From Bacteroidales bacterium (GTDB lineage: Bacteria > Bacteroidota > Bacteroidia > Bacteroidales > Marinifilaceae), in contig SUWY01000007.1 of NCBI GenBank assembly GCA_015061245.1, forward strand, positions 30,718-94,717: a stretch of 64,000 bases of DNA. Direction: 5' to 3'. Under the pieces are notes generated by a model. That model worked only from the letters and a program-made list of their open reading frames with translations. It made no database searches and was not told where the DNA came from. This document shows positions 61,154 through 64,000 of the stretch, piece after piece (within the stretch, counting starts at the first letter, position 1; each line of letters begins with the position of its first letter). Position numbers and translations under genes: made by a program.

Positions 61154-61237
61154 ATGCAAAAGATGATACTAAGAATTACTATGATACTGCTTATAGCCTT
61201 ATCATGTTCGGATAATACAGAAATTGCCCTATGCTGA
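61154..61237 (+). pseudogene. Lipoprotein signal-peptide fragment (27 codons)
   Basis: A short ORF (MQKMILRITMILLIALSCSDN..., 27 residues) with a signal peptide and lipobox-like LSC, then stop after nine further residues. It is preceded by a -7 element. It is either the remaining start of a deleted lipoprotein gene or a small lipopeptide. The surrounding accessory region (IS110 remnant, AT-rich) favours a remnant. Too short for the ORF track. Confidence 0.45.
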
Positions 61238-61308
61238 GATTGCCTTGTCACTAGTTTTCCATTTGCGGATTGTTAAAAATAGTTAAAATTAAAAAAACTC
61301 CACAAACG

Positions 61309-61340
61309 TTTGCATTAACACTTTTCTTGTTTTATATTTG
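61309..61340 (+). promoter_or_regulatory. Consensus Bacteroidota promoter of S74-domain gene
   Basis: TTTG (61309-61312), 20-nt spacer, TATATTTG (61333-61340): full consensus. Transcription would start near 61347, 16 nt before the ATG. Confidence 0.82.
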
Positions 61341-61362
61341 TAGAAACTAAAATCTTAGAGCC

Positions 61363-61986
61363 ATGAAAAAGTTATTTAATCTTATCGTTATGCTATTTAT
61401 AGCATTTGGTGCTAATGCACAGTTCAAATATTTGTCAAATGGTCAGCTAACTTTTGGAAATATTACACCTCCTTATGGTTATGTAACAGCATGGGAGGGT
61501 AAAGGACATTATTTTCATTATAGCGGTAGTACTTCAGGTAACGCGTGGTTAAAATTCTATTTAGGAACTAATGGCCCCCGTATATCTGCCAATACATCAT
61601 ATATAAGGTTTTATGATACTGATACTGAAGTATATCATGATTTATATGTATCGTCAGTATACGAAACCTCTGATTTAAGATTGAAAACAAATATCAGTAA
61701 TGTTCAATCTCCTTTAATTAAGACTTTGCAATTAAGGCCAGTTCAATATACGTTACTTAAATCTCATAGCGATAAAAGTACAAGTCAAGATATTGGATTT
61801 ATTGCTCAGGAATTAGAGAAAATTATTCCTGAGGCAGTTACAACAGACGATAGTGGAAATAAACTAATTAACTATAGAACTCTTATTGCAATTCTTACGG
61901 GTGCAATTCAAGAAATGTCTATTCAGATAAATGACCTTACAGAATTGGTAAAGGTTTTACAAGCGCAAATTAATAACGGTAAATAA
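61363..61986 (+). CDS. Secreted protein with S74 (tail-fiber chaperone) domain
   Basis: A 207-residue exported protein (MKKLFNLIVMLFIAFGANAQ). After about 80 residues of beta-rich sequence comes a C-terminal peptidase S74/endosialidase chaperone domain (TSDLRLKTNISN, QDIGFIAQELEKIIPEAV, INYRTLIAILTGAIQEM) and a short coiled coil. In phage tail spikes this domain trimerises the fibre and then cuts itself off at a Ser-Asp pair; Ser103-Asp104 could be that site. Here it is attached to a secretion signal and a very short passenger. A role as a surface fibre or adhesin is possible but unproven. Confidence 0.82.
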   Translation: MKKLFNLIVMLFIAFGANAQFKYLSNGQLTFGNITPPYGYVTAWEGKGHYFHYSGSTSGNAWLKFYLGTNGPRISANTSYIRFYDTDTEVYHDLYVSSVYETSDLRLKTNISNVQSPLIKTLQLRPVQYTLLKSHSDKSTSQDIGFIAQELEKIIPEAVTTDDSGNKLINYRTLIAILTGAIQEMSIQINDLTELVKVLQAQINNGK

Positions 61987-62039: not shown

Positions 62040-62399
62040 ATAAGTGCTAACTTCGAGCGTAGTTTCCTAATTTAAGCACTATGTCAGAAGTTAGTTTCAC
62101 CCAAGTCGTTCAACGGGGCTGTGGAGTAGATGTCCACAGGGACGAAGCAGTAGCCACTATAGTTGGCGAAGGTCTGAATACTGAACCCCGCAGTTACAAG
62201 ACTTTCAGCAGTTCATTGACAGAATTTCCGAAAGAAATCAGGCCGTTTTTACTGGTATACTCATTTGGAGTAAGACCGAATATGAAACTGGTCTCAACGG
62301 CTAAGCGATCTAGAGTGTGAATTGATCCGTGTATCAAATTTTTATATTCTTAGCTATTGCCTTTTGGATCAATCGTCGCATTTGTAAGGTTATAAGTGC
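62040..62399 (+). mobile_element. Remnant of an IS110-type element (limits tentative)
   Basis: The interval holds the transposase fragment at 62081 and non-coding sequence after it. An ATAAGTGC occurs at 62040-62047 and again at 62392-62399, which might mark the edges, but 8 bp may be chance. An inverted pair ATTGATCC / GGATCAAT (62321-62328 and 62366-62373) lies near the right side. The element has lost most of its transposase. Confidence 0.45.
62081..62320 (+). pseudogene. IS110-type transposase N-terminal fragment
   Basis: A 79-residue ORF. Residues 1-49 match the N-terminus of IS110/IS116/IS902 transposases (QVVQRGCGVDVHRDEAVATI, then LTEF), including the first catalytic Asp of the DEDD (RuvC-like) domain in CGVDVH. 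From about residue 50 the similarity stops and the rest of the roughly 350-400-residue protein is absent. It is therefore a broken, inactive copy. Confidence 0.75.
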
Positions 62400-62489
62400 A
62401 TTCTTTTGATTTGCTATGATACTGCGTAATAGTTTGATTAAGTTAAACTTATGTGTCAGAAATGGCGCTTTGAACGAAAATATTTACGT

Positions 62490-64000
62490 ATGAAAAAATT
62501 ATTTAGCATTGTAATTATAATGTTGGGGATGGTTTCATGTCAACATGACACCATTATTGTTGATAATGGTGCCTTAAACCAAGTGGATATTGTAAAATTG
62601 GATTCTCAGTTCCTTTCAAAATCTTACTATTGGAGTGGAGGGGAAAAGATATGTTTGACCCCAAATTATAATAAATATTATGTTGTATTATCAGAAGTTA
62701 GTAAAACAAAGTATTTATCTTATAATCGAGATGTTGTAGGGCTGTTCGGTTCTGAAGAATATAAGAGTAGACATACAAATATGCAATATGTCGTATATAA
62801 TGTTTTAAATGATGATTTAAATGAATTTTCCAATATACGTTACAAAGCACCATATTATAGATTTGATGATGGAACAGAGTTTGCCATCACGGATATTTTT
62901 TCAGTTAAGTTGTTATTTCGAGAGGATATTGATTTTATGTATGAATTAGCTAATAAAATGCGTGTGTCTGTAATTGGTGTCAATAAATATGATCCTTTGT
63001 GGTTTTATATACAATGTGATAACAATTCTGCTCAAAATGCGCTAGAAATGGCAAATTATTTCTATGAAACAAAAAAGTTTAAGTTTGCAGTGCCTGAGAT
63101 GATGATACCAATAAGTCCGAAAACAACTCCTAATGATCCTTTATTTTCTACGCAGTGGGCGTTATACAACAATCAAAATAACAATTATGATATAAATTAT
63201 CTTGATATACAGGATTATGATATGTCTAATCTACCTAATATAACTATAGCAATAGTTGATTCCGGAGTAGATTTGGAGCATCCAGATTTAGATGTTAATA
63301 TAAAAGAATCTTATGATGCACATACAAAAAGTCAAGGGCAGCTTCTTAGAGGGCCACATGGAACAAAATGTTCAGGAGTAATGGTTGCAAATACTAATAA
63401 TAATATTGGAATTACAGGGATAGCAGATGGGGTTGGTTTTATGCCTATTTCGGTTCAATTTGCGCGTTATGCAAGTAACCCTGATGATTATTCAAGTACT
63501 GCTATTTTTGCTGAGGCCATACAATATGCACACTATAATGGTGCAGATGTAATTAATAATTCATGGTCCTCAAATTATTCAAATGACGACCGAAATGAGG
63601 CAATAAGCGCTGCTATTAAATATGGACGGAATGGTTTGGGTTGTGTAGTTGTATTTTGTTCTGGTAATGATTCTCTATCGACGTGTGCTTATCCGTCTAA
63701 AGATGTTTCTGAAATTTTAACTGTTGGTGCGATTAACAATAATGGTATGCGTAGCACTTTTAGTAATTATGGAGATTGTTTAGATATAGTTGCTCCTGGT
63801 AGAAGTATCAAGACAACTATAAATGGGCTAGAGTATGAATATGCAAGTGGTACATCATTGGCAGCTCCTCATGTTTCTGCTGTAGCTGCTCTAATTTTGT
63901 CTGTAAATCCTTATTTAACACAAAAAGAGGTAAGTGATATAATTGAAAAAACTGCGACAAAATTACCGGCATATCAATATTCGAATGTAACAGGCAGACC
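62490..64000 (+). CDS. S8 (subtilisin-like) serine peptidase lipoprotein, 3'-truncated by window
   Basis: Open to the end of the window (503 codons) and missing from the ORF track because no stop is present. It starts MKKLFSIVIIMLGMVSC, a lipoprotein signal, has an N-terminal pro-region of about 215 residues, and then the S8 catalytic domain with Asp257 (IAIVDSGVDLEHPDLD), His290 (GPHGTKCSGV) and Ser456 (SGTSLAAPHVSAVAAL). It is expected to be a surface or periplasmic protease. Codon and base use are more AT-rich than in the housekeeping part, in line with an accessory region. Product length and C-terminal domains cannot be seen. Confidence 0.92.
   Translation, partial: MKKLFSIVIIMLGMVSCQHDTIIVDNGALNQVDIVKLDSQFLSKSYYWSGGEKICLTPNYNKYYVVLSEVSKTKYLSYNRDVVGLFGSEEYKSRHTNMQYVVYNVLNDDLNEFSNIRYKAPYYRFDDGTEFAITDIFSVKLLFREDIDFMYELANKMRVSVIGVNKYDPLWFYIQCDNNSAQNALEMANYFYETKKFKFAVPEMMIPISPKTTPNDPLFSTQWALYNNQNNNYDINYLDIQDYDMSNLPNITIAIVDSGVDLEHPDLDVNIKESYDAHTKSQGQLLRGPHGTKCSGVMVANTNNNIGITGIADGVGFMPISVQFARYASNPDDYSSTAIFAEAIQYAHYNGADVINNSWSSNYSNDDRNEAISAAIKYGRNGLGCVVVFCSGNDSLSTCAYPSKDVSEILTVGAINNNGMRSTFSNYGDCLDIVAPGRSIKTTINGLEYEYASGTSLAAPHVSAVAALILSVNPYLTQKEVSDIIEKTATKLPAYQYSNVTGR

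What the first reader, a model, noticed from the sequence alone, without database searches (positions are those of the whole stretch)
61363..61986. Secreted mini-protein with a phage tail-fiber chaperone domain
The S74 domain normally ends large phage fibres. Here it follows a signal peptide and only about 80 residues, with a plausible Ser-Asp autocleavage site (Ser103-Asp104) and a perfect promoter. Autocleavage would leave a tiny exported trimer.
Basis: partly seen in the sequence, partly recalled or inferred. Interest (0 to 1): 0.5.

Follow-up and report, generated by a model that had tools for sequence, protein, structure and literature searches.

The report
Small exported S74 (fibre-chaperone) protein
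A gut Bacteroidales bacterium carries a small exported protein ending in the self-cutting folding domain of phage tail fibres; it belongs to a widespread, uncharacterised bacterial family whose genes often head operons for secreted proteases, sugar-cutting enzymes or Rhs-like proteins.

Summary
Window 61363-61986 encodes 207 residues: signal peptide, an 83-residue N-terminal part, and a C-terminal S74 domain (Pfam E=4.5e-14) with the Ser103/Lys108 dyad intact and a textbook Bacteroidota promoter. It is not the stump of a phage fibre. The same short architecture occurs as a paralogue in the same genome, in Bacteroides and Parabacteroides plasmids, and across Bacteroidales. A relic in a sister species shows past purifying selection (dN 0.20, dS about 2). 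'Exported trimer left after autocleavage' is a good inference but untested. Two corrections: by analogy with MyRF the cut falls before Ser103, and this genome shows no T9SS cargo tails, so the product may stay periplasmic.

New here: exported short S74 genes usually lead tight co-directional operons with secreted neighbours (32/40 within 60 nt, against 6/28 for long S74 fibres and 59/144 for random genes). The neighbours are often C25, S8, C1 or C10 proteases, GH16 enzymes or SpvB/RHS proteins; the window's downstream neighbour is an S8 lipoprotein. Best reading: a co-secreted, self-cleaving trimeric knob for surface or secreted effectors. A new variant of a known kind, moderately interesting.

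The parts
61309..61340 (+). Bacteroidota-type promoter TTTG-N20-TATATTTG
61363..61986 (+). short exported S74 gene (207 aa)
61363..61419 (+). signal peptide, residues 1-19 (cut before Gln20, by sequence reading)
   Evidence: Q20 invariant in alignment A1
61420..61668 (+). N-terminal mature part, residues 20-102, conserved R73, FY83-84, V96, V99-Y100; presumed short trimeric stalk/knob
   Evidence: paralogue 36% identical in this part
61669..61983 (+). S74 intramolecular chaperone-protease, residues 103-207; Ser103 codon 61669-61671, Lys108 codon 61684-61686
   Evidence: pLDDT about 80-95 over most of 111-207
61873..61980 (+). C-terminal helix with coiled-coil-like heptads (residues 171-206)
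62484..63998 (+). S8 subtilase with lipoprotein-type signal, downstream neighbour, cut by window/contig end
   Evidence: Pfam E=1.5e-50; pro-domain-like relics at the same place in two related loci
62081..62320 (+). 79-aa ORF between the two genes, possibly an insertion-sequence (IS110-like) remnant; identity unconfirmed
   Evidence: no Pfam family, no match in plasmids; single copy in genome

Best explanation
The gene encodes a resident bacterial, exported mini-fibre. After Sec export the chains trimerise through the S74 domain and its C-terminal helix. S74 templates the fold of the 83-residue N-terminal part, then cuts itself off at Ser103 with the Ser103/Lys108 dyad, leaving a short trimeric knob. 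The knob is co-produced with a secreted or surface effector encoded downstream (here an S8 subtilase lipoprotein; in relatives C25, C1, C10 or M43 proteases, GH16 enzymes or SpvB/RHS proteins) and probably serves as its surface-binding or docking accessory. In relatives with a T9SS tail the protein would reach the cell surface; in this genome, without detected T9SS cargo, it may stay periplasmic or leave by another route. Shown: architecture, conserved dyad, past purifying selection, operon association. Inferred from characterised S74 proteins: trimerisation and autocleavage. Inferred from gene neighbourhood alone: role as companion of the effector.
For: S74 match and solved relatives; S103/D104/K108 and the GFIAQ core conserved. 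Paralogue of 181 aa in the same genome and 204-aa plasmid homologue with the same layout. dN/dS about 0.1 against a sister-species relic. In 40 exported short S74 genes with a readable downstream gene, that gene is co-directional in 40, within 60 nt in 32, and within 60 nt with a crude signal peptide in 28; long S74 fibres 22, 6, 5 of 28; random genes 102, 59, 21 of 144 (Fisher p 2e-6 and 1e-5 for spacing). Neighbour Pfam tally: T9SS tail 14, GH16 6, C25 5, SpvB/FG-GAP 5, C10 2, S8 2, C1 2, M43 2 of 104 proteins, against T9SS tail 4 and none of the others among families shown for 112 random proteins. Bdellovibrio Bd3182 S74 autocleavage needs its serine (PMC10769870); MyRF needs S587 and K592 (PMC8326128).
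Against: No experiment. The N-terminal part could not be modelled (pLDDT under 50) and no binding function is known for it. In the window the S74-S8 gap is about 500 nt with an unexplained ORF in between, so one transcript is not assured. No T9SS cargo tails in this genome. Partners differ widely between loci, so co-occurrence may reflect shared secretion or regulation, not physical interaction. The in-genome paralogue lacks about 9 residues of S74, and two other copies in this genus are decayed, so the gene is dispensable.
Confidence: 0.5

Rival explanations
1. Domesticated phage tail-fibre end: a recently captured 3' piece of a prophage fibre placed behind a signal peptide, with little present function.
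For: S74 is typical of phage fibres; phage proteins align over most of the query, but only at about 25-33% identity. Related copies in this genus are decaying.
Against: Best relatives are other exported Bacteroidales proteins sharing the N-terminal part and signal peptide; the S74 tree groups the window loosely with those, not with phages, apart from one long-branch phage row; dN/dS about 0.1.
Confidence: 0.08
2. Stand-alone surface adhesin or mini-MAT: a trimeric glycan- or surface-binding knob whose function is independent of the neighbouring hydrolase, the operon reflecting only shared export or regulation.
For: Bdellovibrio MAT fibres are exported, S74-cleaved and act as adhesive tips (PMC10769870). 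Partner types vary widely.
Against: Tight spacing to a downstream gene in 32/40 loci is more than long S74 fibres show.
Confidence: 0.3
3. The S74 domain no longer cleaves and acts as a plain trimerising exported domain, or as a chaperone in trans for the neighbouring secreted protein.
For: The paralogue lacks part of S74 yet is kept as an open frame. In most relatives a T9SS tail follows S74, so cleavage would cut the N-terminal part from the sorting tail.
Against: Ser and Lys of the dyad are kept in the aligned members.
Confidence: 0.12

Closest known systems
Phage tail-fibre/tailspike S74 intramolecular chaperones (endosialidase endoNF, T5 L-shaped fibre, 6f45 fibre)
   Same: S74 domain with SDxxxK dyad, C-terminal position, coiled-coil-like last helix
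   Different: Bacterial, with signal peptide, only about 83 residues before the cut, no virion genes around
MAT (mosaic adhesive trimeric) fibres of Bdellovibrio bacteriovorus (S74 subgroup, e.g. Bd3182)
   Same: Chromosomal, exported, end in S74 with SDxxxK; autocleavage shown there
   Different: MATs are about 1000 aa with a conserved ~130-aa domain after the signal peptide; here 207 aa and no room for such a domain
[quoted passage not shown]
   Same: Same domain outside phages; Ser587/Lys592 spacing equals Ser103/Lys108; short beta-stalk before it
   Different: Eukaryotic membrane transcription factor
Unnamed 'tail fiber domain-containing protein' genes of Bacteroidota, mostly with T9SS sorting domain
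   Same: Signal peptide, short N-terminal part, S74; closest sequence relatives (L009, L010, L105)
   Different: Window protein is in the compact subclass without T9SS tail; no function published in the library searched

Membership tests
Peptidase S74 (PF13884) | Sequence match above the curated cut-off | tested here: met
   52.9 bits against cut-off 22, full model
Peptidase S74 (PF13884) | Ser-Lys dyad in SDxxxK | tested here: met
   S103, D104, K108 invariant
Peptidase S74 (PF13884) | Autocleavage at the serine on trimerisation | not testable with these tools
   needs expression of wild type and S103A
Phage tail fibre | Encoded among virion structural genes | tested here: not met
   neighbours are an M24 peptidase, GH127-like genes (by reading) and an S8 peptidase
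Phage tail fibre | No signal peptide, long shaft | tested here: not met
   signal-peptide-like start, 83-residue N-terminal part
Bdellovibrio-type MAT fibre | About 130-aa conserved beta-rich domain after the signal peptide | tested here: inconclusive
   only 83 residues precede Ser103, too short for it; no profile of that domain was run
Bdellovibrio-type MAT fibre | Exported protein ending in S74 | tested here: met
Exported short S74 class of Bacteroidales | Signal peptide, about 60-180 residues, then S74 | tested here: met
Exported short S74 class of Bacteroidales | T9SS sorting domain after S74 (most members) | tested here: not met
   absent here and in the compact subclass (L010, L072, L136-L139)

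The most novel reading that the evidence does not exclude
Bacteroidales have an undescribed operon class in which a small exported, self-cleaving S74 trimer is the dedicated partner (docking, targeting or assembly knob) of whatever secreted effector follows it: proteases, GH16 enzymes or SpvB/RHS proteins.
Probability: 0.25. Interest if true: 0.65.

Novelty: new variant of a known kind. Interest (0 to 1): 0.42.

Why it matters
It shows the phage-fibre folding domain as a common exported bacterial module, in a form small enough (about 83 mature residues per chain) to be a convenient model of S74 templating. If the operon association is functional, it points to an unknown accessory step in how gut Bacteroidales place proteases, glycan-cutting enzymes and Rhs-like proteins at their surface.

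Tried and rejected
Broken phage fibre: rejected (independent short homologues, no upstream fibre, selection). AlphaFold monomer plus Foldseek: S74 part confident but the N-terminal part under pLDDT 50, and no significant PDB match, so no structural claim for the knob. S74-S8 pairing as a universal rule: rejected; the S8 pro-domain family also occurs in genomes of this family without an S74 hit (against 20) and the partner varies. RNA family in the flank: none. NCBIfam: nothing useful. IS110 remnant at 62081-62320: remembered resemblance only, no database support. SprA_N search of the own genome rang in no control either, so it says nothing about T9SS. Literature: no paper found linking S74 with T9SS or this operon.

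Full report
Observation. The ORF at 61363-61986 is real and intact. Its C-terminal half is a Peptidase_S74 domain (Pfam 52.9 bits, E=4.5e-14, residues 103-160) with tail-fibre PHROG matches and solved relatives in phage fibres and MyRF. Residues 1-19 read as a signal peptide and 20-102 as the mature N-terminal part. A promoter of the Bacteroidota type stands at 61309-61340, 22 nt upstream.

Catalytic residues. S103, D104 and K108, with most of the GFIAQE core, are conserved in an alignment of short exported homologues; S103, D104, K108 and GFIAQ are invariant against phage and other bacterial S74 domains. Ser-to-Lys spacing equals S587/K592 in MyRF and S911/K916 in endoNF (PMC8326128). In MyRF the scissile bond lies before the serine, so Thr102-Ser103 is the expected cut here.

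Not a broken fibre. The own genome (83.5% complete) holds a second, 181-aa gene of the same layout and a third, internally deleted one on contig C48. Plasmids of Bacteroides ovatus and B. faecis carry a 204-aa homologue, and a Parabacteroides distasonis record a 292-aa one. A genus mate holds a truncated relic with a stop; window against relic gives dN 0.20, dS 1.99, i.e. purifying selection over most of the divergence.

Class. Among 393 Bacteroidales genomes, 168 have an S74 hit. The fetched proteins fall in two kinds: long fibres (many starting with an 'FNYQAVVRN'-like region after the signal peptide) and short exported ones. Most short ones carry a T9SS sorting tail after S74; a compact subclass of about 200 aa does not: the window protein, its paralogue, the B. 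ovatus plasmid protein and four proteins next to SpvB/RHS genes. An S74 tree (97 columns, poorly resolved) clusters the short class and places the window loosely with L010, L009 and L105.

Operon context. Immediate downstream genes of 40 short S74 genes: all co-directional, 32 within 60 nt, 28 of these with a crude signal-peptide call; long fibres 22, 6, 5 of 28; random genes 102, 59, 21 of 144 (tests). Domains of the neighbours: C25, S8, C1, trypsin-like, GH16 and SpvB/RHS in single loci, and in the tally GH16 6, C25 5, SpvB 5, C10 2, S8 2, C1 2, M43 2 of 104, none of which is among the families shown for 112 random proteins, a list cut at two members. Caveats: six fibre-like loci were left out after their sequences were seen; about half of the short loci were fetched before the idea was formed; some genomes contribute several loci; the signal-peptide call is a simple rule; loci were chosen by similarity to a five-sequence model. 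The window fits with an S8 lipoprotein downstream; the paralogue is followed at about 30 nt by a 618-aa lipoprotein with an HELAH motif (by reading; no Pfam family for it).

Locus variation. C48:1-77 is identical to window 61336-61412, and the window's last bases (63913-63999) are identical to C48:1542-1628, while the sequence between differs strongly; codons 18-50 of the S74 gene differ at dS about 1.4. This looks like two alleles joined by an assembly bubble, one with intact S74 and S8 and one with both damaged, but a tandem copy is not excluded.

Localisation. No T9SS sorting domain was found in the own genome with two models. The protein has no lipoprotein cysteine. Periplasm is the default expectation; surface exposure is not shown.

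Verdict. A real, selected, exported S74 protein of a family that is annotated but, as far as the held library shows, uncharacterised. The mini-trimer after autocleavage is plausible and untested. The operon association is the most interesting result and needs a larger, balanced test.

Noticed in passing
L003 4959-4986 and 6692-6719: In the genus mate the S74 relic plus two lipoprotein genes is bounded by a 28-nt direct repeat (93%) at the 3' end of a nitroreductase-like gene, as if inserted as a block.
   Followed up: no
window 61336-61412 and 63913-63999; L070 1-77 and 1542-1628: Exact shared ends between the window contig and contig C48 flank strongly diverged S74-S8 sequence: probable allelic bubble at a variable locus.
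   Followed up: partly
window 61155-61241: Short truncated lipoprotein-like ORF (MQKMILRITMILLIALSCSDNTEIALC*) just upstream, with another promoter-like sequence in front of it.
   Followed up: no
L105 1849-5473: DUF3244-like small exported protein (by reading), C25 gingipain-like protease, S74 with T9SS tail, then a radical-SAM-like gene (by reading): a compact cluster resembling the TPR-DUF3244-S74 order in Parabacteroides L009.
   Followed up: partly
L136, L137, L138, L139: Four genomes: a ~200-aa S74 gene, a ~145-aa exported protein with an RHS-like 'YDxSGNR' motif (T9SS tail confirmed in L137), and a giant SpvB/FG-GAP protein (with RHS repeats or TcdB-midN in addition) side by side.
   Followed up: partly
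L014 / L075: An even shorter exported S74 protein: 229 aa with Ser at residue 39, i.e. under 20 mature residues before the expected cut, then a long coiled-coil-like tail.
   Followed up: no
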